Translations under genes and position numbers: made by a program | Part shown: positions 13,401-45,272 of the stretch, piece after piece | Position numbering within the stretch: position 1 is the first letter of the stretch | How the letters are laid out: every line of letters starts with the position of its first letter | The notes under the pieces: model-generated | What the model was told of the DNA's origin: nothing | The model's input: only the letters and a program-made list of their open reading frames with translations | Databases searched by the model: none | Origin: Glandiceps talaboti | Lineage: Eukaryota; Hemichordata; Enteropneusta; Spengelidae | Direction: 5' to 3' | DNA length: 64,000 nucleotides | Assembly: GCF_964340395.1 (NCBI RefSeq) | Contig: NC_135556.1 | Span: forward strand, 26,686,562 to 26,750,561

Positions 13401-16400
13401 AAGTCTGATAAATCATTTACGGACAAACCTTCATATGTACGTCGATGGAGACAAAATGAAACTGATCAACTTTCGATCAAAACAAAGAACACACCAGGAA
13501 AGCTGGGAAGTGTAATCAACAGATTTGAACAGTCATCAAACAAGAATAACTCAAACAAATTGTCTAATCAAGACACTGAACACAAGATTAGTGTTAACAA
13601 ACGATGGAAAAGTGACATGGACAAGACAGATATAGAGAAAGCACTCGTTGAAGACGAGGATAAAAAGAAACATGCAAATATTGGAAACGAGAGTCCAAAG
13701 GAAGCAGAATCCCCTAGAGCAGTCAGAAGGCGAAAACTGGGACTTGATCTGGAGAGCATTAATGTGGAATCCACCTTAGAGACTGTGCAACAGTCGATTC
13801 AAAAACAAAAAGAAATGAAATCACCTGTGGATGAAGAGGCCGTCACTCGAAGACGGAAAACTTCAGTTGTGTACAATGACCATCAAACCAACATCATCGA
13901 TGAAAAACCTGTTTCCGCTAAAGAATTATTCAAAAATACGGATGATGAACCTCCCTACTTTGTGTTTCGTAGTAAGAAGACAAGAGATCGACAAATGTTA
14001 GAACATCTCCTTACAGGTGTCACTCAGATGATAGAGGATGGAGCAGAGAAGAAAGAAAGTTCATCAACCACCATAACGAAAACAACACCACCACCACCAA
14101 CGACAACAAATACCGCTACTCCTGCTGTAAAAGAAAATGAAGAAGATGAAGAACGTCAGTGGGCTCATATTGTAAAGAAGCACCATGAAATAGATCAAGA
14201 CCTAAAACAGATGAAAAAAGATATGAATAGGAGAGAGTCTGTGAGTGATGGACCTAACTATGATGGACAAGAAAAGGGAACTGCAAGTGTTGATAAGACA
14301 GAGGATAAAGTGAAAACAAAACAACAAATCCTTCCACCACTTGTCATCAGAGAACGAGACATAAACTCATCACAAAATGCTAGTAATGCTGCTCCTCGTG
14401 TGTCTACACAAAAATTTATCTTAAAGAAATCAGTGACACAAGGATATGTTGGCGAATCAAAAACAAAGAAGGAACCTGAGGATATTATTCCATCACCAAA
14501 TCCTGACAAGGGAGAAATAAAAAAGGATATAAACGACAATGAAAACTCTGAAAATGATTCTAGAAGTTTGTCTCCTGAAGATAAAGATGAAATAGATGTA
14601 GACAGGAGGAGATCTGCAGATGTAGTAAGTATTGCTACGTCAGATCGAACAGATGAAGACTTCCGAAAAGATAGTCTTGATGGTACACCGTCTGAGAGTG
14701 GAGATGATGGTGATGTTGAATCAGGAAATGAAGATAAAGAACCAGGAGTTCGACCAGACAGTGTTACTTCACTTCCAGGTAACAGTTATCAATATGAAGC
14801 TGTCATCGCACACAATGCAAGTAAAGGTGACAACACACCAAAGAAAAGACTTGACTCAAAAAGTAGACTGAAAGAAAAGGCTGATAAGAAACCCCAGTCA
14901 GTAACTACTAGCAGATTGGCCTCTAAAGGGACAGAGAAATCAAATATTCAAAGAATGAGGGCACCAATAAAAACTAGTCCAGCAGCGAATTCTGGAGTCC
15001 GAAAATCAACACTTTCTTCTGATAGGAAATTTCGAGGTAGTGCTGTTCAGTCACTGTTAAGTAAAACTAGCAGTAGAAGCAAAGATTCACTCGAATCAAC
15101 AACATCGGATACTGATTCAAGGAAAGGAGGCCGATCTCGTAGTGGATCTCCTGCAAGTACTTGTTCTACTGCTAGCCGTCGATCTACTAGTTCTGTAGAT
15201 GCAAGAAAAAGACCAGTCCCTAAGCAACACTGTAAGCCAGATTTACACAATAAAATCCCAAACAAATCTCGATCGGGATCAGCTACATCTACTACTAGTA
15301 CTGAGGCTGAGTTATCAAAATCTGCAAAAATCCAACAAAAGAAAGCAGGAGCATCTGGTATTCGACAACCGAAGCGTCATTCTAAAACAGACCAAGCTGT
15401 TGAAGCTGCAAGACAAAGAAGACTCTCAACCAGCACATCGGTTTGTGACAGAGCGCATAGTGGGGATTCAGATTCTGGAAGTCAAAAATCAACCCCAACA
15501 CCTCCACCAAGGTTTTCATCATTCAGACGTACTCAAAGGAGCCCTAGTCCAGTAGGGAGTCACTGTGGAGATAAAAGTGTAAAGAAGGGCAAGGTTGTTC
15601 AGACACCATCTACAGGAGTGAAGAGATCTGACAGCAGACTGGGAAGTAGAAATTCTGGAAAGCCACCTACAACACCATCGACCAGACAGACAACACCAAA
15701 CAAAGCTAATGATCGCCAAACAGACACACCAACCAACAAAACACAATCGACAAAACGTCAAGCTCCTGGTATTCCAAAACCAACAATATCATCAATGAAT
15801 AAAGTGGCTGCTGCCTCCACACCAATACCAAAACCCGTGAGCGGAACAGTGTCCTCAACAAGTGTCAAAAAATCACATCCTCCAAGGAGAATAGCCACTG
15901 TAACAACATCTCCACCTCCTGACAAAGACAAAATTCCACAGTCTCCAAGAACAGCAAGAACAGCAATCAAAATGGGTACAGCCAGTTTAGGATTAAGTAG
16001 CTATCAATCACCTACTCGAAGAGGTCAGAGTGTTCAGCCTATTCGACCAACAACTTTGAATACCACACCAAGATCTTCACAAGACAGTCATCGTGATTTG
16101 GCAAGGAAAAAAGAAGAGATTAGGAATTCATTTAGGAAAAAGAATAATGCTGACACTGATACTTCTAAAATAACATCGCCTATACAATCATCACAGTCAC
16201 AGTACTTGAGTCCATCTGAAGTATCACACCCAGTGTGGTCACCAATGCCTGGTCCATCTACACCACTTGGGTCACCAATTCAACAAAAGACACCATCACC
16301 AATTCCATTGGGGTCCCCTGTGATGCACCAGTCTCCAACACCAGTTATACCAGGTTCAACTCTGACAACACTTTCTCAATCACCAACACAGGCAGCCAGA

Positions 16401-17522
16401 ATGTCTCCAGGACAGGCCCCAAGCCCAGGACCTCCACCTAGTCCCCAAGCTAAATCAGCATCAGGGAGCCAACAGAGCATAGCGAGTACTGCCAGTACTA
16501 GCATTCCATGTGCTGGCTCAACACAAAGTCTTGATTCACAGTTGTCAGGGGCAAGTGCTCAGACTGATTCTTTACTCACTAGTATCGCTATGACAGCATC
16601 TTCTGTAGCAGATTCTTTGTCTCCATTAATACACAGTACCTCTGACCCGGATGTTGGACAGAAATTAGAGATTCAGAAAGATCTCTCACCTATTGAATCT
16701 ATAGAAGCTGCTAAAAGTGTCATGGTAAACCTGCAAACAACACACACTAAGTCATCTGAAAGTAGCAGCCCAGCCAAAGCACCGAAAGCAAGCAGGGTTA
16801 GTCGACTTATTGGAATGCTTACCAGGAAATCGGACAAGAAGCAAGAACAGCAGCAGCAGGCACAGCCATCAAAACTACACAGAAGTTTGTCTGTTGGGTC
16901 ACGACCAACCAGTGCGGTACCAATGATGCCTGGTGGTGGGAAAGTTGCTGCTATTGTCAATAACATCGACAACACATCAACAAATCAAAAAGAGAGAACA
17001 AACACTTTACAAAACACTGCCATTATTGAAGATTGTCAGTACGTTGCTTCCGTAGCAGATATGTCAACCCCTACTATCCCAGAAACTCCATCAATTGCCG
17101 AAACTCCCCGGGAAACTTATGATAATGTGCCTGAGCCAGAAACACAAACCCTGGCTATACCGGAGGTGTCATCTTTGATTGTAACTAGTCCAGATACAAC
17201 ACCAAGCCCTGTTTCAACCACCGAAACCTCTTTATCACCTTCTCCAACACCATCAAAATCGTCAAAGATACCAGGTCCAAAAACTTCAAAAACAACAATT
17301 GTCCTGAGTAGGAATGTATCTCCACCTACTTCATCAGCCACAAGATTTGGAACATCTAAAACAAGAGCAACGTTCACTGCCAGAGATCGCTCACAAGCAG
17401 TTTCATCAACGTTGAACCAGCAAACAAGCAATTTTTCAAGGTCTGCCTCTGTCAATGCTAAAACAGGACAGAAATTGAAAAGAAGTACTTTGACCACGAC
17501 CATCAAGAAGACCAAAGTGTGA
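572..17522 (+). CDS. INF2: INF2-like formin, 3' part of gene (12 exons visible)
   Basis: Formins nucleate and elongate unbranched actin filaments: FH1 recruits profilin-actin and the FH2 dimer caps the barbed end. Twelve exons join in frame (572-719, 1704-2486, 2980-3126, 6236-6297, 6669-6771, 7311-7396, 7744-7844, 8430-8500, 8972-9079, 9773-9964, 11038-11202, 11715-17522) and give 2,590 visible residues. These are the end of the DID/dimerisation region (about 1-110), a Cys cluster (about 125-165), FH1 (about 204-261), FH2 (about 278-655), a Glu/Arg-rich helix and a DAD/WH2-like motif [15 protein letters not shown] (nt 11850 on), then a tail of about 1,860 residues. The order DID-FH1-FH2-WH2-like fits the INF2 family (Drosophila Form3 clade); human INF2 is about 1,250 residues, so the tail is greatly enlarged. 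The 5' end lies outside the window. FHDC1 is the nearest alternative but lacks a DID. Confidence 0.9.
720..1703 (+). other. Formin intron
   Basis: Intron between two DID-region exons, with GTAGGT donor and a T-rich tract before TATAG. It holds a short (CAAAT)n run at 1562-1584. Nothing else is recognised. Confidence 0.7.
1704..2486 (+). CDS. INF2: Formin exon: DID end, Cys cluster, FH1 and FH2 start
   Basis: Acceptor TTATAG|GTGTAC and donor AAG|GTGAGT, 261 codons, phase 0 at both ends. It begins with the last DID helices ([15 protein letters not shown], then [13 protein letters not shown]) and continues through a charged helix to a linker with CDCDCHK and two more Cys. Next is FH1: several runs of 4-10 prolines separated by Gly-rich spacers (nt 2167-2337). 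It ends with the FH2 lasso, [11 protein letters not shown], including the conserved LNW for the post contact. Confidence 0.9.
2797..2846. repeat. GTT / GTTTTT simple repeat
   Basis: GTT triplets followed by GTTTTT hexamers in the formin intron between 2486 and 2980. Confidence 0.9.
2980..3126 (+). CDS. INF2: Formin exon: FH2 N-terminal part
   Basis: Acceptor TTTCAAG|GCAAGT and donor GAG|GTAAGT, 49 codons, phase 0 at both ends. It codes for [15 protein letters not shown], the FH2 helix that usually reads D...LE.LF, followed by a Lys-rich loop. The next FH2 exon is 3.1 kb away. Confidence 0.85.
3127..6235 (+). other. Large formin intron within FH2
   Basis: The largest formin intron here (3.1 kb). 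It holds a weak Arg-rich reading frame on the minus strand (about 3464-3703) and a cluster of TATA-like sequences at 4037-4068. No recognised transposon or RNA gene. Confidence 0.7.
6236..6297 (+). CDS. INF2: Formin exon: FH2 'LLD..RS.NI.IFL..F' segment
   Basis: A 62-bp exon, acceptor TTTTGTAG|GTAAAT and donor AGGAG|GTGAGA. It reads [20 protein letters not shown], which holds the family-diagnostic FH2 signature with the conserved Ile of the barbed-end-binding knob (NINIFL). Phase 0 in, phase 2 out. Confidence 0.92.
6669..6771 (+). CDS. INF2: Formin exon: FH2 knob/linker helices
   Basis: Acceptor ATTTTCAG|CACTAA and donor GAG|GTATGT. Enters in phase 2 and leaves in phase 0. It codes for helices reading [11 protein letters not shown] and [15 protein letters not shown]; the second is the well-conserved 'L..L.K.LP...E' FH2 segment. 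Confidence 0.92.
7311..7396 (+). CDS. INF2: Formin exon: FH2 'L..F.GD...L..AE.F' segment
   Basis: Acceptor TTTCTTACAG|ATTGAA and donor AAAAG|GTACGT. It reads [19 protein letters not shown], the standard FH2 sequence. Phase 0 in, phase 2 out. A compound tetranucleotide microsatellite begins 34 bases after the donor. Confidence 0.92.
7430..7581. repeat. Compound tetranucleotide microsatellite (CATA)n-(CAGT)n-(CAGA)n
   Basis: Three tetranucleotide blocks follow without a gap: CATA to about 7493, CAGT to about 7553, CAGA to 7581. They change by one base at each boundary, suggesting stepwise spread from one block to the next. It lies inside a formin intron, 34 bases past the donor at 7396. Confidence 0.95.
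7744..7844 (+). CDS. INF2: Formin exon: FH2 core helices
   Basis: Acceptor TTTGATAG|TTATAA and donor AAAG|GTAAGT. It codes for [19 protein letters not shown] and an 'I..IERAGKE' helix typical of the FH2 core, where most formins read 'RL..M.F...F'. Phase 2 in, phase 1 out. Confidence 0.9.
8430..8500 (+). CDS. INF2: Formin exon: FH2 'LG.ILYLVL..GN.IN' segment
   Basis: Acceptor TTCTTTCAG|AACTGA and donor TCA|GTAAGT. It codes for [18 protein letters not shown]; the 'GN.(I/M)N' motif is among the most conserved of the FH2 domain. Phase 1 in, phase 0 out. Confidence 0.93.
8972..9079 (+). CDS. INF2: Formin exon: FH2 'GNA.GFKL.SLLKL' segment
   Basis: Acceptor GTTTATAG|GGAGGT and donor ATG|GTAAGC, 36 codons, phase 0 at both ends. 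It codes for [20 protein letters not shown] followed by NFIHYVVM, the canonical 'A.GF.L..L.KL.D...' and 'LLH(Y/F)' elements of FH2. Confidence 0.93.
9773..9964 (+). CDS. INF2: Formin exon: FH2 post-domain helices
   Basis: Acceptor CTTTCAACAG|CAAGCA and donor AAG|GTTTGT, 64 codons, phase 0 at both ends. It starts with Lys-rich [12 protein letters not shown], then [16 protein letters not shown] and a long amphipathic helix, matching the FH2 'L...L..V..A..........' part of the dimer post. Confidence 0.9.
10132..10374. mobile_element. Possible MITE-like inverted-repeat element
   Basis: GGGAACTTGCAA at 10132-10143 is matched by its exact reverse complement TTGCAAGTTCCC at 10363-10374. The ~240-bp span also contains a perfect 14-base palindrome CTGAGCATGCTCAG near 10348. 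There is no coding capacity and I see no convincing target-site duplication, so the element boundaries are tentative. It lies in the formin intron 9965-11037. Confidence 0.35.
11038..11202 (+). CDS. INF2: Formin exon: FH2 C-terminal end
   Basis: Acceptor TTCCAG|AATGCC and donor GAG|GTAAGA, 55 codons, phase 0 at both ends. It reads [20 protein letters not shown] and [11 protein letters not shown]; formins typically have 'YFGE......E.F..F..F...F..A..EN' at this point, so it closes the FH2 domain. Confidence 0.92.
11715..17522 (+). CDS. INF2: Formin terminal exon: WH2/DAD-like motif and giant tail
   Basis: Acceptor TTTTCTCTACAG|GAAAAC; TGA stop at 17520-17522; 1,935 codons uninterrupted. It begins with [11 protein letters not shown] and a Glu/Arg-rich helix that ends the FH2 domain, then the WH2/DAD-like [15 protein letters not shown] (11850-11894), which in INF2 binds actin monomers and the DID. 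The rest is low-complexity: Ser, Pro, Thr and Lys-rich with scattered acidic patches. It has a repeated motif of type R-x-(R/K)-S-x-(I/M)-D-x-x-(D/E)-(V/I)-(D/E)-x-A-L at 12432, 12543, 13182 and 13602, and SxIP-like motifs near 15818, 16297 and 17261. No folded domain is recognised in the last 1,800 residues. The last residues are basic (IKKTKV). Confidence 0.92.
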   Translation, partial: ENEQRRIQEQKAEERRKQREEQEAAKRRRKERSGSLPGGALPGTEGPLVDRLLGNIRSGFPQKKFNDIMLQSPDQSLSPTSPAYSDLMSPNSPADDTTVFGFSRGNSIRRSRKFNKNLESITEKGGQEEMDNRPDERRFSVYSTSSSSSKDESPHGTLTGRRLRNFNDTQGEEELFDVLHQMHTTDQSDLRREGSLRRSRRKGSRKDVSDVSRERNDSPGRTPESRDYMRNKDSSRVRERPRSYIDPTEVDGALRQYEKSQAKSESVEKPYQSKITRPRSYIDSRDVDSALENMDWKSLLPRRPRSHEFRGVTTDSLLQDDKKDDIAKSPFRRARSFHVRSELEKTSNANKDNLSDSVSWKENMRSRQTGFVESKDVNRVMGSEEKNNSDSSDTEPKVHIQRRGRRNALPTNRDFATASMATGDRWRRKLSTETEPEENKIENKNEEAKSEVAITSGELPEKSKAESESVISPEKVEGFEKKRLDRDQRRSRSEIDKQDIDTALSEHTTKKTQSTGKTSPTEIKQTQNPEKVTYRLRYATDLDEDGFKVKYSIDDTKKDVTAKSDKSFTDKPSYVRRWRQNETDQLSIKTKNTPGKLGSVINRFEQSSNKNNSNKLSNQDTEHKISVNKRWKSDMDKTDIEKALVEDEDKKKHANIGNESPKEAESPRAVRRRKLGLDLESINVESTLETVQQSIQKQKEMKSPVDEEAVTRRRKTSVVYNDHQTNIIDEKPVSAKELFKNTDDEPPYFVFRSKKTRDRQMLEHLLTGVTQMIEDGAEKKESSSTTITKTTPPPPTTTNTATPAVKENEEDEERQWAHIVKKHHEIDQDLKQMKKDMNRRESVSDGPNYDGQEKGTASVDKTEDKVKTKQQILPPLVIRERDINSSQNASNAAPRVSTQKFILKKSVTQGYVGESKTKKEPEDIIPSPNPDKGEIKKDINDNENSENDSRSLSPEDKDEIDVDRRRSADVVSIATSDRTDEDFRKDSLDGTPSESGDDGDVESGNEDKEPGVRPDSVTSLPGNSYQYEAVIAHNASKGDNTPKKRLDSKSRLKEKADKKPQSVTTSRLASKGTEKSNIQRMRAPIKTSPAANSGVRKSTLSSDRKFRGSAVQSLLSKTSSRSKDSLESTTSDTDSRKGGRSRSGSPASTCSTASRRSTSSVDARKRPVPKQHCKPDLHNKIPNKSRSGSATSTTSTEAELSKSAKIQQKKAGASGIRQPKRHSKTDQAVEAARQRRLSTSTSVCDRAHSGDSDSGSQKSTPTPPPRFSSFRRTQRSPSPVGSHCGDKSVKKGKVVQTPSTGVKRSDSRLGSRNSGKPPTTPSTRQTTPNKANDRQTDTPTNKTQSTKRQAPGIPKPTISSMNKVAAASTPIPKPVSGTVSSTSVKKSHPPRRIATVTTSPPPDKDKIPQSPRTARTAIKMGTASLGLSSYQSPTRRGQSVQPIRPTTLNTTPRSSQDSHRDLARKKEEIRNSFRKKNNADTDTSKITSPIQSSQSQYLSPSEVSHPVWSPMPGPSTPLGSPIQQKTPSPIPLGSPVMHQSPTPVIPGSTLTTLSQSPTQAARMSPGQAPSPGPPPSPQAKSASGSQQSIASTASTSIPCAGSTQSLDSQLSGASAQTDSLLTSIAMTASSVADSLSPLIHSTSDPDVGQKLEIQKDLSPIESIEAAKSVMVNLQTTHTKSSESSSPAKAPKASRVSRLIGMLTRKSDKKQEQQQQAQPSKLHRSLSVGSRPTSAVPMMPGGGKVAAIVNNIDNTSTNQKERTNTLQNTAIIEDCQYVASVADMSTPTIPETPSIAETPRETYDNVPEPETQTLAIPEVSSLIVTSPDTTPSPVSTTETSLSPSPTPSKSSKIPGPKTSKTTIVLSRNVSPPTSSATRFGTSKTRATFTARDRSQAVSSTLNQQTSNFSRSASVNAKTGQKLKRSTLTTTIKKTKV

Positions 17523-24859: not shown

Positions 24860-24868
24860 TAATTTGGT
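24860..24868. repeat. Target-site duplication, left (TAATTTGGT)
   Basis: Nine bases directly outside the left terminus, repeated exactly at 32252-32260 directly outside the right terminus. The neighbouring bases do not extend the match, so the duplication is exactly 9 bp, the size made by Foldback and other Mutator-like transposons. Confidence 0.93.
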
Positions 24869-24930
24869 GGGTGACCCTAAAACGAATGACAACCTGAATG
24901 ACGGAAAACGAATGACAGCATTTCTAGGTG
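24869..24930 (+). repeat. Left terminal cap of the foldback element
   Basis: The 62 bases from GGGTGACCC to CTAGGTG are identical, inverted, to 32190-32251. The cap holds three GAATGAC cores (24884, 24896, 24910) spaced 12 and 14 bp, closer than the ~31-bp spacing inside the arm. This looks like a transposase-recognition end, by inference. Confidence 0.9.
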
Positions 24931-27900
24931 GTAAACAGTGGAATGACACCCTTTTCTACATTCAGTTAGTTGAATGACACCCTCTACACTGTAGAACCAG
25001 TGGAATGACAGCCGCCACTCTATAAAATAAGTGGAATGACAGCATTTTCAATGCTTTAGAACTGGAATGACAGCATTTCTAGGTGGTAAACAGTGGAATG
25101 ACACCCTTTTCTACATTCAGTTAGTTGAATGACACCCTCTACACTGTAGAACCACTGGAATGACAGCCGCCACTCTATAAAATAAGTGGAATGACAGCAT
25201 TTTCAATGCTTTAGAACTGGAATGACAGCATTTCTAGGTGGTAAACAGTGGAATGACACCCTTTTCTACATTCAGTTAGTTGAATGACACCCTCTGCACT
25301 GTAGAACCACTGGAATGACAGCAGCCACTCTATAAAATAAGTGGAATGACAGCACTTTCAACGCTTTAGAACTGGAATGACAGCATTTCTAGGTGGTAAA
25401 CAGTGGAATGACACCCTTTTCTACATTCAGTTAGTTGAATGACACCCTCTGCACTGTAGAACCACTGGAATGACAGCCGCCACTCTATAAAATAAGTGGA
25501 ATGACAGCATTTTCAATGCTTTAGAACTGGAATGACAGCATTTCTAGGTGGTAAACAGTGGAATGACACCCTTTTCTACATTCCGTTAGTTGAATGACAC
25601 ACTCTGCACTGTAGAACCACTGGAATGACAGCCGCCACTCTATAAAATAAGTGGAATGACAGCATTTTTAATGCTTTGGAACTGGAATGACAGCATTTCT
25701 AGGTGGTAAACAGTGGAATGACACCCTTTTCTACATTCAGTTAGTTGAATGACACCCTCTACACTGTAGAACCAGTGGAATGACAGCCACCACTCTATAA
25801 AATAAGTGGAATGACAGCATTTTCAATGCTTTAGAACTGGAATGACAGCATTTCTAGGTGGTAAACAGTGGAATGACACCCTTTTCTACATTCAGTTAGT
25901 TGAATGACACCCTCTGCACTGTAGAACCACTGGAATGACAGCAGCCACTCTATAAAATAAGTGGAATGACAGCACTTTCAACGCTTTAGAACTGGAATGA
26001 CAGCATTTCTAGGTGGTAAACAGTGGAATGACACCCTTTTCTACATTCAGTTAGTTGAATGACACACTCTGCACTGTAGAACCACTGGAATGACAGCCGC
26101 CACTCTATAAAATAAGTGGAATAACAGCATTTTCAATGCTTTAGAACTGGAATGACAGCATTTCTAGGTGGTAAACAGTGGAATGACACCCTTTTCTACA
26201 TTCAGTTAGTTGAATGACAACCTCTGCACTGTAGAACCACTGGAATGACAGCCGCCACTCTATAAAATAAGTGGAATGACAGCATTTTCAATGCTTTAGA
26301 ACTGGAATGACAGCATTTCTAGGTGGTAAACAGTGGAATGACACCCTTTTCTACATTCAGTTAGTTGAATGACACCCTCTGCACTGTAGAACCACTGGAA
26401 TGACAGCAGCCACTCTATAAAATAAGTGGAATGACAGCACTTTCAACGCTTTAGAACTGGAATGACAGCATTTCTAGGTGGTAAACAGTGGAATGACACC
26501 CTTTTCTACATTCAGTTAGTTGAATGACACCCTCTGCACTGTAGAACCACTGGAATGACAGCCGCCACTCTATAAAATAAGTGGAATGACAGCATTTTCA
26601 ATGCTTTAGAACTGGAATGACAGCATTTCTAGGTGGTAAACAGTGGAATGACACCCTTTTCTACATTCCGTTAGTTGAATGACACACTCTGCACTGTAGA
26701 ACCACTGGAATGACAGCCGCCACTCTATAAAATAAGTGGAATGACAGCATTTTTAATGCTTTGGAACTGGAATGACAGCATTTCTAGGTGGTAAACAGTG
26801 GAATGACACCCTTTTCTACATTCAGTTAGTTGAATGACACCCTCTACACTGTAGAACCAGTGGAATGACAGCCACCACTCTATAAAATAAGTGGAATGAC
26901 AGCATTTTCAATGCTTTAGAACTGGAATGACAGCATTTCTAGGTGGTAAACAGTGGAATGACACCCTTTTCTACATTCAATTAGTTGAATGACACCCTCT
27001 ACACTGTAGAACCACTGGAATGACAGCCGCCACTCTATAAAATAAGTGGAATGACAGCATTTTCAATGCTTTAGAACTGGAATGACAGCATTTCTAGGTG
27101 GTAAACAGTGGAATGACACCCTTTTCTACATTCAGTTAGTTGAATGACACACTCTGCACTGTAGAACCACTGGAATGACAGCCGCCACTCTATAAAATAA
27201 GTGGAATGACAGCATTTTTAATGCTTTGGAACTGGAATGACAGCATTTCTAGGTGGTAAACAGTGGAATGACACCCTTTTCTACATTCAGTTAGTTGAAT
27301 GACACCCTCTACACTGTAGAACCACTGGAATGACAGCCGCCACTCTATAAAATAAGTGGAATAACAGCATTTTCAATGCTTTAGAACTGGAATGACAGCA
27401 TTTCTAGGTGGTAAACAGTGGAATGACACCCTTTTCTACATTCAGTTAGTTGAATGACAACCTCTGCACTGTAGAACCACTGGAATGACAGCCGCCACTC
27501 TATAAAATAAGTGGAATGACAGCATTTTCAATGCTTTAGAACTGGAATGACAGCATTTCTAGGTGGTAAACAGTGGAATGACACCCTTTTCTACATTCAG
27601 TTAGTTGAATGACACACTCTGCACTGTAGAACCACTGGAATGACAGCCGCCACTCTATAAAATAAGTGGAATGACAGCATTTTTAATGCTTTGGAACTGG
27701 AATGACAGCATTTCTAGGTGGTAAACAGTGGAATGACACCCTCTTCTACATTCAGTTAGTTGAATGACACCCTCTACACTGTAGAACCAGTGGAATGACA
27801 GCCGCCACTCTATAAAATAAGTGGAATAACAGCATTTTCAATGCTTTAGAACTGGAATGACATCATTTCTAGGTGGTAAACAGTGGAATGACACCCTTTT

Positions 27901-28553
27901 CTACATTCAATTAGTTGAATGACACCCTCTACACTGTAGAACCACTGGAATGACAGCCGCCACTCTATAAAATAAGTGGAATGACAGCATTTTCAATGCT
28001 TTAGAACTGGAATGACAGCATTTCTAGGTGGTAAACAGTGGAATGACACCCTTTTCTACATTCAGTTAGTTGAATGACACCCTCTGCACTGTAGAACCAC
28101 TGGAATGACAGCCGCCACTCTATAAAATAAGTGGAATGACAGCATTTTCAATGCTTTAGAACTGGAATGACAGCATTTCTAGGTGGTAAACAGTGGAATG
28201 ACACCCTTTTCTACATTCAGTTAGTTGAATGACACACTCTGCACTGTAGAACCACTGGAATGACAGCCGCCACTCTATAAAATAAGTGGAATGACAGCAT
28301 TTTTAATGCTTTGGAACTGGAATGACAGCATTTCTAGGTGGTAAACAGTGGAATGACACCCTTTTCTACATTCAGTTAGTTGAATGACACACTCTGCACT
28401 GTAAAACCAGTGGAATGACAGCCGCCACTCTATAAAATAAGTAGAATGACAGCATTTTTAATGCTTTGGAACTGGAATGACAGCATTTATAGGTGGTAAA
28501 CAGTGGAATGACACCCTTTTCTACATTCCGTTAGTTGAATGACACCCTCTACA
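24921..28553 (+). repeat. Left arm: 155-bp tandem array, 24 register copies
   Basis: The marker TTTCTAGGTG recurs every 155 bases from 24921 to 28486 (there as TTTATAGGTG). Each unit is five subrepeats of 31, 32, 30, 31 and 31 bp, each starting (G)GAATGACA. Shared variants show a 7-unit (1,085-bp) higher-order block: for example GCACTTTCAACG at about 25353 and 26438, and ACATTCCGTTAG at about 25580 and 26665. Confidence 0.93.
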
Positions 28554-28567
28554 GTGTAGAGGGTGTC
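28541..28567. repeat. Centre of the giant palindrome
   Basis: The arms join at G28554 inside TCTACA-G-TGTAGA. The same short palindrome, with central C, occurs once in many 155-bp units of the left arm. The junction therefore sits on a hairpin already present in the repeat, as expected if one arm folded back on itself there. Confidence 0.9.
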
Positions 28568-31500
28568 ATTCAACTAACGGAATGTAGAAAAGGGTGTCAT
28601 TCCACTGTTTACCACCTAGCAATGCGGTCATTCCAGTTCTAAAGCATTAAAAATGCTGTCATTCCACTTATTTTATAGAGTGGCGGCTGTCATTCCACTG
28701 GTTCTACAGTGTAGAGGGTGTCATTCAACTAACTGAATGTAGAAAAGGGTGTCATTCCACTGTTTACCACCTAGAAATGCTGTCATTCCAGTTCGAAAGC
28801 ATTGAAAATGCTGTCATTCCACTTATTTTATAGAGTGGCGGCTGTCATTCCACTGGTTCTACAGTGCAAAGGGTGTCATTCAACTAACTGAATGTAGAAA
28901 AGGGTGTCATTCCACTGTTTACCACCTAGAAATGCTGTCATTCCAGTTCTAAAGCATTGAAAATGCTGTCATTCCACTTATTTTATAGAGTGGCGGCTGT
29001 CATTCCAGTGGTTCTACAGTGCAGAGGGTGTCATTCAACTAACTGATTGTAGAAAAGGGTGTCATTCCACTGTTTATCACCTAGAAATGCTGTCATTCCA
29101 GTTCTAAAGCATTGAAAGTGCTGTCATTCCACTTATTTTATAGAGTGGCGGCTGTCATTCCAGTGGTTCTACAGTGCAGAGTGTGTCATTCAACTAACTG
29201 AATGTAGAAAAGGGTGTCATTCCACTGTTTACCACCTAGAAATGCTGTCATTCCAGTTCTAAAGCATTGAAAGTGCTGTCATTCCACTTATTTTATAGAG
29301 TGGCGGCTGTCATTCCACTGGTTCTACAGTGCAGAGGGTGTCATTCAACTAACTGAATGTAGAAAAGGGTGTCATTCCACTGTTTACCACCTAGAAATGC
29401 TGTCATTCCAGTTCTAAAGCATTGAAAGTGCTGTCATTCCACTTATTTTATAGAGTGGCGGCTGTCATTCCAGTGGTTCTACAGTGCAGAGGGTGTCATT
29501 CAACTAACTGAATGTAGAAAAGGGTGTCATTCCACTGTTTACCACCTAGAAATGCTGTCATTCCAGTTCTAAAGCATTGAAAGTGCTGTCATTCCACTTA
29601 TTTTATAGAGTGGCGGCTGTCATTCCAGTGGTTCTACAGTGCAGAGGGTGTCATTCAACTAACTGAATGTTGAAAAGGGTGTCATTCCACTGTTTACCAC
29701 CTAGAAATGCTGTCATTCCAGTTCTAAAGCATTGAAAATGCTGTCATTCCACTTATTTTATAGAGTGGCGGCTGTCATTCCAGTGGTTCTACAGTGCAGA
29801 GGGTGTCATTCAACTAACTGATTGTAGAAAAGGGTGTCATTCCACTGTTTACCACCTAGAAATGCTGTCATTCCAGTTCTAAAGCATTGAAAATGCTGTC
29901 ATTCCACTTATTTTATAGAGTGGCGGCTGTCATTCTAGTGGTTCTAAACTGCAGAGTGTGTCATTCTACTAACTGATCGTAGAAAAGGGTGTCATTCCAC
30001 TGTTTACCACCTAGAAATGCTGTCATTCCAGTTCTAAAGCATTGAAAATGCTGTCATTCCACTTATTTTATAGAGTGGCGGCTGTCATTCCAGTGGTCAC
30101 GGTTCTACAGTGCAGAGGGTGTCATTCAACTAACTGAATGTAGAAAAGGGTGTCATTCCACTGTTTACCACCTAGAAATGCTGTCATTCCAGTTCGAAAG
30201 CATTGAAAATGCTGTCATTCCACTTATTTTATAGAGTGGCGGCTGTCATTCCACTGGTTCTACAGTGCAAAGGGTGTCATTCAACTAACTGAATGTAGAA
30301 AAGGGTGTCATTCCACTGTTTACCACCTAGAAATGCTGTCATTCCAGTTCTAAAGCATTGAAAATGCTGTCATTCCACTTATTTTATAGAGTGGCGGCTG
30401 TCATTCCAGTGGTTCTACAGTGCAGAGGGTGTCATTCAACTAACTGATTGTAGAAAAGGGTGTCATTCCACTGTTTATCACCTAGAAATGCTGTCATTCC
30501 AGTTCTAAAGCATTGAAAGTGCTGTCATTCCACTTATTTTATAGAGTGGCGGCTGTCATTCCAGTGGTTCTACAGTGCAGAGTGTGTCATTCAACTAACT
30601 GAATGTAGAAAAGGGTGTCATTCCACTGTTTACCACCTAGAAATGCTGTCATTCCAGTTCTAAAGCATTGAAAGTGCTGTCATTCCACTTATTTTATAGA
30701 GTGGTGGCTGTCATTCCACTGGTTCTACAGTGCAGAGGGTGTCATTCAACTAACTGAATGTAGAAAAGGGTGTCATTCCACTGTTTACCACCTAGAAATG
30801 CTGTCATTCCAGTTCTAAAGCATTGAAAGTGCTGTCATTCCACTTATTTTATAGAGTGGCGGCTGTCATTCCAGTGGTTCTACAGTGCAGAGGGTGTCAT
30901 TCAACTAACTGAATGTAGAAAAGGGTGTCATTCCACTGTTTACCACCTAGAAATGCTGTCATTCCAGTTCTAAAGCATTGAAAGTGCTGTCATTCCACTT
31001 ATTTTATAGAGTGGCGGCTGTCATTCCACTGGTTCTACAGTGCAAAGGGTGTCATTCAACTAACTGAATGTAGAAAAGGGTGTCATTCCACTGTTTACCA
31101 CCTAGAAATGCTGTCATTCCAGTTCTAAAGCATTGAAAGTGCTGTCATTCCACTTATTTTATAGAGTGGCGGCTGTCATTCCAGTGGTTCTACAGTGCAG
31201 AGGGTGTCATTCAACTAACTGAATGTAGAAAAGGGTGTCATTCCACTGTTTACCACCTAGAAATGCTGTCATTCCAGTTCCAAAGCATTGAAAGTGCTGT
31301 CATTCCACTTATTTTATAGAGTGGCGGCTGTCATTCCAGTGGTTCTACAGTGCAGAGGGTGTCATTCAACTAACTGAATGTTGAAAAGGGTGTCATTCCA
31401 CTGTTTACCACCTAGAAATGCTGTCATTCCAGTTCTAAAGCATTGAAAATGCTGTCATTCCACTTATTTTATAGAGTGGCGGCTGTCATTCCAGTGGTTC

Positions 31501-32190
31501 TACAGTGCAGAGGGTGTCATTCAACTAACTGATTGTAGAAAAGGGTGTCATTCCACTGTTTACCACCTAGAAATGCTGTCATTCCAGTTCTAAAGCATTG
31601 AAAATGCTGTCATTCCACTTATTTTATAGAGTGGCGGCTGTCATTCTAGTGGTTCTAAACTGCAGAGTGTGTCATTCTACTAACTGATCGTAGAAAAGGG
31701 TGTCATTCCACTGTTTACCACCTAGAAATGCTGTCATTCCAGTTCTAAAGCATTGAAAATGCTGTCATTCCACTTATTTTATAGAGTGGCGGCTGTCATT
31801 CCAGTGGTCACGGTTCTACAGTGCAGAGGGTGTCATTCAACTAACTGAATGTAGAAAAGGGTGTCATTCCACTGTTTACCACCTAGAAATGCTGTCATTC
31901 CAGTTCTAAAGCATTGAAAATGCTGTCATTCCACTTATTTTATAGAGTGGCGGCTGTCATTCCAGTGGTTCTACAGTGCAGAGGGTGTCATTCAACTAAC
32001 TGAATGTAGAAAAGGGTGTCATTCCACTGTTTACCACCTAGAAATGCTGTCATTCCAGTTCTAAAGCATTGAAAGTGCTGTCATTCCACTTATTTTATAG
32101 AGTGGCGGCTGTCATTCCACTGGTTTTACAGTGCAGAGGGTGTCATTCAACTAACTGGATGTAGAAAAGGGTGTCATTGCACTGTTTATC
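28555..32190 (-). repeat. Right arm: inverted 155-bp array, 24 register copies
   Basis: The marker CACCTAG recurs from 28613 to 32190, 23 steps of 155 bp plus 12 bp. The extra 12 bp are two identical 6-bp insertions (TCACGG) near 30096 and 31807. Variants repeat at a 1,401-bp shift (9 units + 6) in the first part and 1,711 bp (11 units + 6) in the second, so a block of the arm was duplicated and gained two units. Confidence 0.92.
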
Positions 32191-32251
32191 ACCTAGAAAT
32201 GCTGTCATTCGTTTTCCGTCATTCAGGTTGTCATTCGTTTTAGGGTCACCC
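32190..32251 (-). repeat. Right terminal cap of the foldback element
   Basis: Exact inverted copy of 24869-24930, ending GGGTCACCC. The immediately internal bases already differ between arms (TGTTTATCAC here), so identity is highest at the very ends. Confidence 0.9.
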
Positions 32252-32260
32252 TAATTTGGT
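32252..32260. repeat. Target-site duplication, right (TAATTTGGT)
   Basis: Exact copy of 24860-24868 directly after the terminal GGGTCACCC. Confidence 0.93.
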
Positions 32261-39300: not shown

Positions 39301-42300
39301 TAAAGAACAAATCTTGACTGCAAAAGATGACATGCAAATAATGATTGGTTAATCAATGATCAAGTTGGTTAGAATGTCGAGTGATGTGGTGACAACTTGG
39401 AAGGAAATGTATACTATTCATGCACCCTCCATGAAAACTTTAAAGACACCGTATAGTATACTTGAGGTGTTAGTGAGCCATACATACGTTGTTGGAAATG
39501 TCTCTTGCCACTGCCAGGCCTTGTTTCAACAATCAGGGGTCCAAAAACCATGTCAGGTTTCTCTCCTATATGTTATGAAATGAACATGTATCTTGATACA
39601 TGTATGTTAAGAAATAAAAGAGATTTCTAATTCTAATCGACTAAGACATAGATTTTACAAAGTGTTTTGATGCATTATTTAGGAGCTGGGTGTTAGAAGA
39701 TGAGTGGAAAAAGTGAGAAAAGAAGAAGAAGAAGCAGATGGCTAGAATTACAGGCAACTTACACGACTCAATTATAGTACTATACCCACAACTACCGCAA
39801 AAAATCCATGTGCACTGAACACAGATCATGGGGCAAGAAAAGCTTTGCAAACCAGTGTTGCTGTGGCAAACAAAACAAAACTCATATTTTGAAATATTGT
39901 CACAGAAAACAAAATAAGAGCAATAAATTTGACATGTAGAAAACTGAAATGGCTGTGCAATATGCTTTGATTGATTGAAGAAAAACAGCAATACACCAAG
40001 AGTTCTACCTTGTATCAGCATTTATCTACGGTAGGATACACCCTTTGTGTGTAATGCTTTATAAGTGAGGCATTATCCATATATAGTGAGTGGGTCTGTA
40101 CAAACTAGAAACATGTACATACCACATGAATTGCATAAAACTGTATATCAATCTTTCATATGCTCCTTAGCTGTTCATTTTAGATTCTCTGATTTTATCA
40201 CTACATACATAGAGGTATGATTGACTCTACTGTGCATGTATGGTAGTTATGTTATGTAAATTTATCATGGTGCACAAATACACGATAGAACATGGAAGTA
40301 ATCAACCATCTCATTCCTTGGTAACTACAACATACAGCCTTTCATTAATCAATTCACTGCTCACTCCTATTGTATGTAACTACAAGCAACATTTATCAAA
40401 TATAGCCCAAGTATAGAGGATATTTACTTGGTATCTCTTTTCTCTATTTGGCAATTACTTATAAGGGTGTATCCTTCCATAATGACTTATCCAGACTATT
40501 CATGTGCAACTTCTTTCGTAATATGGAAGGGAACTATTTTTTAGCATCTCATTAATTTTTTTCAATATAGAAATTGTAAGATGTTTTTAGCAGAAAAAAT
40601 CATAAAGACATGACATATGTATATGTAGGTCAATAATCAGGTGCTGATGTCATGCAGACAACCTTTTTGTGCATGTCCTATTGACTGGGATTACAGAAAC
40701 ATTGCAGCTAGCCGTGTTAAAGTTGGTGTTTTCATGCATGGTATTGTGGTCTGTTTTCATCCAAGTTGGATAGATCAAACACATGTTGCGCACTGGTCCA
40801 GCCCTTCTAAAACGGGGACTGTAATGTGGAGAAAATGTATTGTTGGTACTGATACAACAACCAATAGAAACAGGAGCATGGACAAGAGGATACAAATGAA
40901 GTCAGAGAAAAGATCACAGGCCAATAATGATCTAGCCATTTTTGGCTTTTTGTTTATACTCAGTCATAGCTGAGTTCAATGTTGTTGTGTCAACACCAGT
41001 TACATTAATTAACAGTAGAGAATATAGAACAGAAATACTCAGTGTTGTAAGTTCATACCAGGATAGTCATGGTTCAAGTGTGGTAGTTTCATAGACTTGA
41101 TGAAAAGGACTACACTGTTTAAATTAATGTCACAGACAACATCGGAATGAAAACTGAATGCCTTTTCAGCATTTTTAGTTCTTACTTAGTTTTGGACATG
41201 GCAGTGAAAGAGAAACACCTCAGTGGATCATGGCAATACATTTGAAAATTAATCTTGACCTCCATTCAAATGGAGATACTGGTAAAATTATGATAGTTTT
41301 ATAACTGTAATACAAAGAGGAAAGGATTTACAGTTGATGTACCACAATTGATTTGTTCAAGACAAAAGCTGTACAGTATAACTACAAAGAAAACAAACGT
41401 GTATGAGGATCAAAAATAATCAAGTGAATTCAGAAAGAGTAAGCAAGGGTCACTCATCACACATCAAATTACAAGTACACCTTAACATTTGCATCTAGCA
41501 ATATCTATGATAAGACTGCATGTTCCTCCCATAATAAAACTTTATTACAAACTGCCACCTTCAAATGTGACCAAGCAATCTACTTCTAATTGCAAAACAT
41601 GCACCAGAATATTTCAATGGCAAGTTCATTTTGATATGTAAAATTGACAGTTTCCACAGAGAGGCATCTGAATTGGTGATGGCAGGTTGGATCAAACCCC
41701 CTATTTCTATACACATATTTCTCTGACTTTGAATTTGTGATTTTAACAGGCCGGATGTACTTGGTAGTAGCTGTTGTATATTCCTTTTTAGACGATGTGG
41801 ACTTTAAAAATTTGGAAATTGAAAGTATTCACGGGCCATTTTAACACGCCTATTCTTCAACCATAAGGTACTGTACCTTGTCGCAACATTTGTTTGTTCG
41901 TTGTTTTTATGAAAACAGGCCAACAGCATGGAGTTTGTAGAATTATTGGAAAAATCTTCATGCTGATACAAGCTGAGAAGCACAAACGGTAATGGACACC
42001 TAACAAACTTGGATTACGGACAATAATATTCAGTGTACTACAGGGTCTACATGCTATTACTGTGCAGTAATTTTTTTTTTAGCAATTAACACTGCAAATA
42101 TGAGACAAGTTGTTGTGAATACTCAAATCAACCATGCACACGGAAAAAGACAAATATGAAAGTACAAACTGTCACAAGTCTAAACTTGATAATGATAATT
42201 GACACTGAATTTGAAACTGATGTTCCTTTTTTTTCATCTAAAGTGATGTTATTAAATTACATGTGCATTTATGATTTTAAACAGATTGGAACAAGAAGAA

Positions 42301-45272
42301 TGATAGTAACGTCAGGTATTTCACCTCTTGCTGTATCATTCTTTCTCGGAGTATCAGTAGATGACCGTGGAGTCTGACTTCGAGGGGTTGGAGCCTTGAC
42401 TCGTGGAGTTCTAGGAGTTGAAGCCTTTTCTCGTGGTGATTTAGGTTCTGACGATGATTTTTTAGGACTTGGTGCTTTCCCCCTTGGACTTTTAGGTGGA
42501 CTTTTGGTGGTGGGAGATTTTACTATGGGACTTTTCTGAGTTGGACTTTTTGGACTTTTTGGTGATTTAGGTGGTGTCTTAGCTGGACTTTCTTTAGGGC
42601 TCTCATCGGCTGTCCCATTTACTGCAGGGACATTATTTTCAGCCGGAGCTGGATTTGATGGTTCTGGATTTTCTGTTTTGGTGGTTTCTGATTGGGCATT
42701 TGCTGGATCATCAGCAGGTGCTGGATCTGACGGTTCAGCATTTTCTGTATTTGGGGTTTCTGATTGGGCATTTGAAGGCTCCTCACTCTCGGGAGCTGGA
42801 TTTGATGAATCTGCATTTTCTGTATTGGGGGTTTCTGATGGGGCATTTGCAGGATCCACACTCTCAGGAGCTGCCTCATCTGCTGCAAAGAATTTAGCCA
42901 TCGAAAACATTGAAAAAAAAAGAAGTATAAATTCATACTGAAACAAACCATGCCATGAAAAACTATTTTCATTACTGAACAGCACACACTAGTTTATGTT
43001 GATCTAACAATACACTACAGAGCATGAAAGAATGTACAAGATCACCCATGCTTATAAATGTAATGGAACACATCCTGTGGTGTATGTCATGTAAACTTGT
43101 ATTCTATGTCAGAATTATGTATTGTGTTTTTGCTTGTGTAGATGATACAATAAGATGTGTGGCATTATACAAACAAACTTTACAATATGATCCAGTTGTT
43201 GCAGCATGCATCCAGTATGTAGACGCTAACTGAAAGCCAGGTGTACCTGTATGTTTATAGTGGAAAGCTTTGTTAGTAGATGTATGTAGATATATGAAGA
43301 CGTCAGCTGTACCTATATGTCTGTTTCATTTGTTTTATTGTGTGTGTATCATATGGAATGGACCACCACCTGTGATCTGATATATGAAAGCAAAGCCTCA
43401 GATGTTAGTACAGCTGTTGTGTGATGCAGGCTCAGAGGCAAGAAGTGGTTCAGTACAGTCTTCAGACACACTATATGCAGCTCTTTATCTCTTCTAGTGG
43501 CAGCTGAATTTTTGCTCAAGATGCTGTGACTGGCATCAACATTAGTATAGTACTAGTAGTAAGATTTAGAATAATATGTATATAGTATACATACAATTAT
43601 TAAATCACTGCTTTCTGGTCAAAACTTAGAATAAATAGGTAATTATACATACAATTGTAAAATTACTCTTTTCTACTTATATGTACATACATGTACATAC
43701 AATTGTAAAAACACCGTTTTCCAGTTGGAACTTATATGTACATACATGTACATATAATTGTAAAAACACCGTTTTCCAGTCAGAACTTGGAATAAATATG
43801 TACCGTACATACATCATACAATTATCGGATCATTGCCTTACTTCACATTATTCAAATCCTGTCAAAAATTAAAAGGTTAACAGAGAAATGCCAGACATAC
43901 AGAGAATAAATTCTGCACTCCAAATAAATTCAAGTCTTGTTTCATACTTCAAAGGAAGCTTTCATTAGTTTCAATATATATATATTACATTTAATTTTTA
44001 GGCTTGATTCAAAGCCCTGTATTTCTGTCTATTCATTGTTTTTTAACAACAGAGGACTAATTGATAAACTGCTATCATGTTACATTTACATGACTGTTAC
44101 TGGGTGTGTTGAAAAAGTTGTTTGTTTGTGAAAAGAAAAAAGATGGTTCAAGTATTCATACATACATACATACATACATACATACATACATACATACATA
44201 CATACATACATACATACATACATACATACATACATACATACATACATACATACATACACACATACATACATACATACATACATACATAAATATATACATA
44301 CATACATACATAATACTAGATATTGGTATATACATATACTCAACTTGTAACTATGTAACTATATAACAAGTTCAGTGAAAGACAATTAGAATTATATACA
44401 ATGACCTACCACAGCATGTACACATGTCTTACCTTGTGTCATTGCTGGAGTGGAATTTGGTTGGCCACCATCATCACCACCATAATCTCCAAGCTGAAAG
44501 CTGGATGCACCACCTGGTGGGGCAAGAACCCTGGAAAGGACAAAAACAATATAATGGTGATAAGATGTTCTTTACATTGTATGATATAAACAGAAAAGCT
44601 AAAACACCAGAGGTTTTAATCAAAGTACTTACTGAGGGCTTAAAGTATGTGTAATTTCAACAATTTACTCACATCCCCCATTACAATACACAGCACTGTG
44701 ATTTCACTTAATTTCATGGGATGATGTAAATTTTACTACATTCCCTTCCTCTGTAATAATGGGTTTCTAAAGCCTTAACAAAAAACTAACTTTATGCAGG
44801 TTGCAACCTATGTTATGGAGTAAATGTATCCTGTGTTGAAGTAAACATTTACACTGTAGTGAAAGTACTGCCCTCTGGAGCCCTCTGTTGTGAACTTTAC
44901 AAATCAAGAAAGAGTGATCATTTCCAAAGAAATTAAAATCATCAACACTGGTGAGCGAGTTATGGACTGAAAGGAAACCATAATGAAGAAGGTACATTTA
45001 TTTTCTTTGTACACTAGTTTAAAACAAAATAGTGTCAATCACATCCTGGCAGTCTGAGAGTATGGACAACAAGCATGGGATCATGGTCTGAGATGGAACA
45101 CCTAACACTTGTTGGAGAATTTGGGACTTGTACTTGCCAGTGGCTTGTATCAAACAAACTTTCCCAATTCATCTGAGATATTCCGTCTCAGCCCACTGGG
45201 ATTCTACATATCCCTAGTCTGCAAGTGTGTGAACATGCATTGGGTTTGTCTGTGAGTTTATCAGTGTATATG

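What the first reader, a model, noticed from the sequence alone, without database searches (positions are those of the whole stretch)
24860..32260. Intact foldback transposon with fully repetitive arms and a 9-bp target-site duplication
Seen: TAATTTGGT on both sides, exact 62-bp inverted ends starting GGGTGACCC, and two tandemly repetitive arms that fill the whole 7.4 kb with no unique loop and no coding capacity. Known: 9-bp duplications and inverted arms made of tandem repeats mark the Foldback/Rehavkus group of Mutator-like elements. Inferred: a non-autonomous member, possibly of an undescribed family, mobilised by a transposase elsewhere in this genome. Sharp ends and an unmutated duplication suggest insertion that is not very old.
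Basis: partly seen in the sequence, partly recalled or inferred. Interest (0 to 1): 0.9.

Follow-up and report, generated by a model that had tools for sequence, protein, structure and literature searches.

The report
Acorn-worm foldback transposon made of repeats
This 7.4-kb stretch of an acorn worm's genome is a jumping-DNA element with no genes, built almost entirely of mirrored tandem repeats; other copies exist in the same genome, and its repeat layout oddly matches that described for a fruit-fly element.

Summary
In detail: 9-bp duplications (24860-24868, 32252-32260), exact 62-bp inverted ends, a 7,383-bp palindrome with no unique loop. The window is Glandiceps talaboti, a hemichordate. 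It belongs to a mobile family: 206 exact 23-bp ends genome-wide, backwards control 0; 15 of 19 copies with both ends seen have perfect 9-bp duplications. So it is a non-autonomous foldback transposon, not an artefact.

Each arm is a tandem array of 155-bp blocks, each of five 31-mers sharing GAATGACA, a motif also in the ends. Drosophila FB is described with the same layout.

New: 12 loopless copies carry 10 different head-to-head junctions. In five copies including the window (grouped after the fact), arm units match the same side of other copies (44%) more than their own opposite arm (10%); six other copies show the reverse.

Not shown: the transposase. Of 31 MULE-domain hits, 0 of the 20 on contigs with listed ends is within 119 kb of one.

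The parts
24860..24868 (.). left 9-bp target-site duplication TAATTTGGT
24869..24930 (+). left 62-bp exact terminal inverted repeat; begins with the imperfect palindrome GGGT-G-ACCC; three GAATGAC motifs 13 bp apart
   Evidence: spacing read from the sequence
24910..28553 (+). left arm: 23 full 155-bp units plus a partial one; each unit is five 31-mers carrying GAATGACA
28548..28560 (.). head-to-head junction of the arms, 13-bp palindrome TCTACA-G-TGTAGA, axis 28554; same junction as copy L012 on contig C7
28555..32210 (-). right arm: 23 full 155-bp units plus a partial one, opposite orientation
30097..30102 (.). 6-bp insertion in a right-arm unit (placement within the repeat is ambiguous by a base or so)
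   Evidence: read
31808..31813 (.). the same 6-bp insertion about 1.7 kb away, within a block that recurs
   Evidence: read
32190..32251 (-). right 62-bp exact terminal inverted repeat
32252..32260 (.). right 9-bp target-site duplication TAATTTGGT

Best explanation
A non-autonomous foldback DNA transposon of Glandiceps talaboti, one of a family with 206 exact 23-bp ends in the assembly. SHOWN: copies share fixed ends (GGGTGACCC...) but have different flanks and their own 9-bp duplications; arms are arrays of a 155-bp block of five 31-mers; arm lengths differ between arms and copies; two pairs of copies on different contigs, each with its own duplication, share a head-to-head junction, so loopless copies themselves transpose. 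INFERRED: a DDE transposase encoded elsewhere recognises the terminal palindrome and the GAATGACA motif at the ends, and the arms multiply that motif every 31 bp (about three helical turns), so that the arms are largely a ladder of secondary binding sites. Arms grow and shrink by unequal exchange and block copying. The middle domain is lost by deletion joining two opposed arms at 0-7 bp of microhomology, as in failed gap repair after excision. The transposase is most likely of the Mutator (MULE) superfamily, because of the 9-bp duplication, the GGG ends and the Muta1-like end layout.
For: Perfect 9-bp duplications in 15 of 19 copies with both ends seen. 206 exact 23-bp ends, control 0; among the 99 listed ends on C1-C7, 32 facing pairs spanning 447-16,154 bp. 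GAATGACA at 31-bp spacing and in the terminal 41 bp. 10 distinct junctions in 12 loopless copies, microhomology 0-7 bp, two junctions each shared by two copies on different contigs; the window and L012 share the variants of the central partial unit. In the group of five copies that includes the window, units match the same side of other copies; over 11 copies 51 of 55 pairs prefer same-side pairing, score 10.4 against a maximum of 5.7 in 60 shuffles. Muta1: terminal imperfect palindrome + subterminal tandem repeats + 8-9-bp duplications. MULEs: 8-11-bp duplications, conserved G/C at the first three positions in most arthropod MULEs. The genome does encode MULE domains.
Against: No copy coding for a transposase was found. 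Of 31 MULE hits, 20 lie on C1-C7 and the nearest is 119.9 kb from a listed exact end; the other 11 are unchecked, and copies with mutated ends would be missed. Three MULE stretches read (L037, L041, L042; 5.5-6.5 kb, which may not reach the element ends) show neither the motif nor GGGTGACC. Foldback architecture also arises on P-type transposases (Galileo). Binding of any protein to GAATGACA is untested. Against loop loss by deletion alone: in the other group (6 copies) units match their own opposite arm best (34% against 11%), and over all 11 copies the mean similarity of the two arms of one copy (0.69) exceeds that of same-side arms of different copies (0.65). 4 of 19 copies lack a perfect duplication.
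Confidence: 0.72

Rival explanations
1. The same kind of element, but moved by a transposase of another superfamily (P-type as in Galileo, Merlin, or an undescribed one); the foldback form and 9-bp duplication are convergent.
For: Foldback arms occur on both P and MULE transposases; none of the 20 checkable MULE hits lies near a listed end.
Against: 9-bp duplications, GGG ends and the terminal palindrome with subterminal repeats fit MULEs best; Galileo has 7-bp duplications (recalled). No other transposase family was searched for here.
Confidence: 0.22
2. It is specifically a Rehavkus element, as the first reader half suggests.
For: Rehavkus is described with 9-bp duplications and a minisatellite before the 3' TIR; this genome has a MULE with a PHD finger beside 49 copies of a 40-bp repeat.
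Against: That minisatellite and stretch hold neither GAATGACA nor GGGTGACC; Rehavkus is described with one minisatellite and TIRs of 26-400 bp, not mirrored arrays of kilobases.
Confidence: 0.08
3. Loopless copies arise by folding back: one arm is copied in inverted orientation at a short hairpin, so both arms start as mirror copies.
For: In the window the axis sits on the longest perfect palindrome of its unit variant (6-bp stem against 3 at any other place); in the second group units match their own opposite arm best (34% against 11%); over 11 copies arms of one copy are on average slightly more alike (0.69) than same-side arms of different copies (0.65).
Against: In the window's group units match the same side of other copies (44%), not the own opposite arm (10%); by register the two window arms are hardly closer than permuted ones (p 0.06); in the other 10 of 12 copies, which do not share the window's junction, the perfect inner run at the best axis is only 0-4 bp.
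Confidence: 0.25
4. Assembly artefact or a satellite array with a chance inversion.
For: Long palindromes and tandem arrays are hard to assemble.
Against: Different flanks on the two sides with a duplication at each end, and the same ends with other flanks and duplications in other copies.
Confidence: 0.01

Closest known systems
Drosophila melanogaster FB (foldback) element (PMC7642927, passages)
   Same: 9-bp duplications; mirrored arrays of tandem blocks, each block made of five distinct repeats of 27-31 bp; block number differs between arms and copies.
   Different: FB there has 467-479-bp end sequences, spacers, CTC separators, a middle region of about 320 bp and 2 to 8 blocks per side; here the end outside the array is 41 bp, 16 of the 19 copies with both ends seen have no unique middle, and arms reach 36 and 67 blocks. 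Sequence homology was not tested (no FB sequence at hand).
Muta1 / Phantom MULEs (PMC5225508 and PMC6446971, passages)
   Same: Terminal imperfect palindrome, short subterminal tandem repeats, 8-9-bp duplications, non-autonomous derivatives with variable repeat number.
   Different: Muta1 TIR is 145 bp with 12-bp repeats and encloses a transposase; none found here. The Phantom row of the table seen in PMC6446971 names no hemichordate host.
Tm1 of root-knot nematodes (PMC3169594, sections 5 and 9 and passages)
   Same: 9-bp duplications, composite TIRs with variable numbers of a short motif, MULE/Phantom-type partner, non-coding members.
   Different: 14-bp motif, TIRs with 1-9 motif units, asymmetric terminal motifs.
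Tetris of Drosophila virilis (PMC4079207, sections 10 and 16 part 1)
   Same: Non-autonomous foldback, TIRs with tandem repeats, 8-10-bp duplications, no partner found.
   Different: 220-bp repeats, TIRs up to 1.7 kb, a middle domain, a flanking domain of up to 866 bp; no 31-bp phasing in the sections read.
Galileo (P superfamily; PMC3688188, abstract and passages)
   Same: Long internally repetitive TIRs; secondary transposase binding sites shown in its tandem repeats.
   Different: P-type THAP transposase; 7-bp duplications (recalled).

Membership tests
Foldback elements (structural class) | long inverted arms made of tandem repeats | tested here: met
Foldback elements (structural class) | repeat number varies between arms and copies | tested here: met
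   12 copies, 2.0/3.6 to 23.5/23.6 units; 36/67 units in the 16-kb copy
Foldback elements (structural class) | mobile: same ends, different flanks, duplications | tested here: met
   15 of 19 copies with both ends seen
Drosophila FB layout | blocks of five distinct 27-31-bp repeats | tested here: met
   five 31-mers per 155-bp block against the description
Drosophila FB layout | FB end domain of 467-479 bp and spacer | tested here: not met
   the non-array end here is 41 bp
Drosophila FB layout | sequence homology to FB or its NOF protein | not tested
Mutator (MULE) superfamily | 8-11-bp target-site duplication | tested here: met
   9 bp in 15 of 19; range
Mutator (MULE) superfamily | G/C at first three terminal positions | tested here: met
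   GGG; feature stated for most arthropod MULEs
Mutator (MULE) superfamily | MULE transposase encoded by a member with the same ends | tested here: inconclusive
   31 MULE hits; 0 of 20 on C1-C7 within 119 kb of a listed exact end; 11 on other contigs unchecked
Phantom/Muta MULEs | terminal palindrome followed by subterminal tandem motifs | tested here: met
   GGGT-G-ACCC and three motifs 13 bp apart
Phantom/Muta MULEs | Phantom-type transposase | tested here: inconclusive
   none found with these ends
Rehavkus | PHD-finger transposase in the element | tested here: inconclusive
   a PHD-MULE exists in the genome, but the stretch read has neither the ends nor the motif
Rehavkus | one minisatellite, before the 3' TIR | tested here: not met
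   mirrored arrays on both sides in the window, up to about 10 kb in the 16-kb copy; feature. The exact 62-bp inverted end would fit the 26-400 bp TIR range given there
Galileo / P superfamily | 7-bp duplication (recalled) and P transposase | tested here: inconclusive
   duplications here are 9 bp; the 7-bp figure comes from no call, and no P transposase was searched for

The most novel reading that the evidence does not exclude
A transposon that is almost nothing but transposase binding sites: a ladder of about 230 (about 500 in the 16-kb copy) copies of one motif phased at 31 bp, in blocks of five, without a loop. Drosophila FB is described with the same five-by-31 block, more than 500 million years away (divergence time recalled). 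So the block layout would be either an ancient inherited form or one forced by how the transposase multimer wraps DNA, and loopless ladders would be formed again and again and kept because more sites win more transposase or titrate it.
Probability: 0.2. Interest if true: 0.82.

Novelty: new variant of a known kind. Interest (0 to 1): 0.6.

Why it matters
Whether the tandem repeats of Foldback and Phantom ends are transposase binding sites is stated as untested in PMC3688188 of 2013 (passage). This family gives a sharp test: one motif, fixed spacing, and natural copies with about 6 to about 104 blocks in all that share the same ends. It also shows natural loopless foldbacks forming repeatedly and moving, puts a fly-FB-like five-by-31 layout in a hemichordate, and offers 16 palindromic copies read here (and 32 facing pairs of ends listed on contigs C1-C7) for studying palindrome stability and inversions.

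Tried and rejected
Relatives in viral contigs (two exact patterns): none. Relatives elsewhere in the window: only 13-bp matches at E 0.24. Register-matched arms (a simple mirror origin) for the window: weak at best, p 0.06. A SAP-like ORF in the middle of copies L013 and L019 was first taken as a gene of the autonomous element; by eye it lies inside a nested element with GGGAGCC...GGCTCCC ends, so it was dropped. Three MULE loci (L037, L041, L042) show no link to these ends. Equal arms as a sign of constraint: rejected, since the other 11 of 12 loopless copies have unequal arms. The near-identity of the 62-bp ends among copies is biased, because the copies were picked by best match to that end; the 16-kb copy was picked for its size from the list. 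Dropped before the duplication count: eight stretches with only one kind of end in view (L016, L018, L020, L025, L028, L033, L034, L035); L001-L008 are short pieces of places fetched again or of the window and were not counted apart. L019/L030 and L032 are counted as copies with both ends although the two ends may not belong to one element. Dropped from the sidedness test: three copies with fewer than three units in an arm (L010, L022, L026). The unit walker also skipped units (21 of 23 in the window's right arm, 9 of about 18 in one arm of L017, smaller losses in others). Limits: the orientation of each copy was chosen to give the best score (in the shuffles too), the two groups were drawn by eye, percentages are means over arms, and shuffling units breaks local block copying, so the contrast with the shuffles is overstated.
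Full report
WHERE. The large exon at 11688-17519 is 99% identical over its first 900 residues to an uncharacterized Glandiceps talaboti protein, LOC144439438, on a 27.5-Mb contig; the only other match listed is a formin-J-like protein of Anneissia japonica. Taxonomy: Hemichordata, Enteropneusta, Spengelidae. The window is G000:C9:26686562-26750561 of a 590-Mb, 47-contig assembly. The element starts about 7.3 kb downstream of that exon.

OBSERVATION. The arms are equal in length after two 6-bp insertions in the right arm are set aside.

ANATOMY. From outside in: GGGTGACCC (GGGT and ACCC pair around a G); GAATGACA, GAATGACG, GAATGACA 13 bp apart (read); then 155-bp units. Each consensus unit is exactly five 31-mers that share GAATGACA and a few more positions (0 of 2000 letter shuffles reach the similarity outside the core). 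The motif occurs 116 + 117 times in the element and 3 times in the other 56.6 kb. 31 bp is about three helical turns (established knowledge), so sites would face the same side of the helix; that they bind the transposase is inference.

IT IS A FAMILY. A 71-bp end query gave 310 candidates, of which the 40 scored all matched at 4e-24 or better. The exact 23-bp end occurs 99 + 107 = 206 times, the backwards control 0. The first 100 places are listed, 99 of them on contigs C1-C7: 32 facing pairs spanning 447-16,154 bp (median 3.9 kb) and 35 unpaired ends. Of 19 copies in which I saw both ends, 15 have perfect 9-bp duplications: 13, L031 and the 16,154-bp copy. Misses: L019/L030 and L023, L032 and L036 (L036 is 7 of 9, in a microsatellite-like flank). 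Of the 19, 14 are plainly loopless, 2 are loopless but rearranged or very lopsided (L023, L036), 2 have a middle domain (L013/L014, partly masked, and L019/L030), and 1 (L032) is partly masked and cannot be judged. The 16-kb copy is 36.3 and 67.4 units between its ends.

HOW LOOPS ARE LOST. In 12 loopless copies I located the point where orientation flips: 10 different junctions, 0-7 bp of microhomology, offsets of 5-71 nt between the joined unit positions. The window and L012 (contig C7) share one junction and the variants of the central partial unit, while units further out differ (the right arm of L012 could be followed for five units only). L015 and L027 share another, read from opposite strands. 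All four have their own duplications. So loopless copies form repeatedly and then transpose. Two more copies (L031 and the 16-kb one) have junctions that look different again by eye.

DO ARMS KEEP THEIR SIDE? In WIN, L009, L012, L021 and L031, on average 44% of units have an exact twin on the same side of another copy, 10% on the opposite side of another copy and 10% in their own opposite arm. Over 11 copies, 51 of 55 pairs prefer the same-side pairing after the best orientation is chosen; score 10.4 against mean 2.5, maximum 5.7 in 60 shuffles. For this group two old, distinct arms seem to have travelled together before the present junctions formed, which favours deletion between arms over folding back. 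Against this: in L011, L015, L017, L024, L027 and the 16-kb copy the own opposite arm is the best match (34% against 11% and 10%), so conversion between arms or true folding back is likely there; and over all 11 copies the two arms of a copy are slightly more alike (0.69) than same-side arms of different copies (0.65). The groups were drawn after the fact.

WHO MOVES IT. Unknown. The genome has 31 MULE-domain hits, all over the family's cut-off. 20 lie on C1-C7; the nearest is 119.9 kb from any listed exact end. 11 lie on contigs whose ends were not listed. One MULE read closely (L037, 775 aa) has a PHD finger and a C48 match below its cut-off, beside 49 copies of a 40-bp repeat, but not this motif or GGGTGACC in the 5.5 kb seen; L041 and L042 likewise lack them. 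The MULE assignment rests on duplication length, GGG ends and the Muta1-like layout.

COMPARISON. Drosophila FB is described as mirrored tandem blocks, each with five distinct repeats of 27-31 bp, with 9-bp duplications (PMC7642927, passages). That is the closest layout I found. Muta1 (PMC5225508, passages), Tm1 (PMC3169594, sections and passages), Tetris (PMC4079207, sections) and Galileo (PMC3688188, abstract and passages) share parts. Sequence homology to FB could not be tested. In a search for Glandiceps talaboti with repeat terms and one for hemichordate with MULE/foldback terms, none of the 20 papers listed in each shows the terms Glandiceps talaboti or hemichordate, respectively; only the top of long result lists was seen and most journals are not held, so this is not proof of absence.

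VERDICT. A real, mobile, non-autonomous foldback transposon family; the kind is known, while the scale, the lack of a loop in 16 of 19 copies read and the five-by-31 match to the description of fly FB are unusual.

Noticed in passing
L037:2319-4646 (+) and L037:73-2014: A 775-aa open MULE gene (MULE, ZSWIM-type RNaseH-like, PHD finger, C48 protease below cut-off) beside 49 copies of a 40-bp minisatellite: features like those described for Rehavkus, which PMC6446971 lists for arthropods and annelids. The best of 47 relatives is a Ptychodera flava protein at 46% identity over 70%. TIRs and duplication were not found in the stretch.
   Followed up: partly
L019:7690-9133; shared part in L013:6693-8252: By eye, a nested element with ends GGGAGCC...GGCTCCC and a SAP-like ORF (below Pfam cut-off) sits in the middle domain of two related foldback copies; TTA on both sides suggests a 3-bp duplication.
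   Followed up: partly
L016:276-701 and 5302-5727: A left end plus 2.5 units lies near a sulfotransferase-like ORF (Sulfotransfer_2), and the stretch recurs in tandem about 4.6-5.0 kb on; no right end seen there or in the next 5.1 kb.
   Followed up: no
G000:C6:9244283-9244729 and 9248154-9248600: Two facing pairs of ends 447 bp long and 3.9 kb apart, the smallest listed; perhaps minimal MITE-like derivatives, not read.
   Followed up: no
L019:1277-2407 and 3661-5943: Two reverse-transcriptase ORFs between the ends of one foldback copy, so arms and middle seem to serve as targets for retrotransposons.
   Followed up: no
window 57758-58065 and 59507-59859: Two arrays of the same 33-bp repeat (9.2 and 10.7 copies) about 1.7 kb apart, with related flanking pieces at 56657, 62163 and 63224.
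   Followed up: no
window 54802-55013: 4.9 copies of a 43-bp repeat at 100% matches.
   Followed up: no
window 42269-42988 (-): A 239-aa Pro/Lys/Ser-rich ORF with internal repeats and no Pfam match.
   Followed up: no
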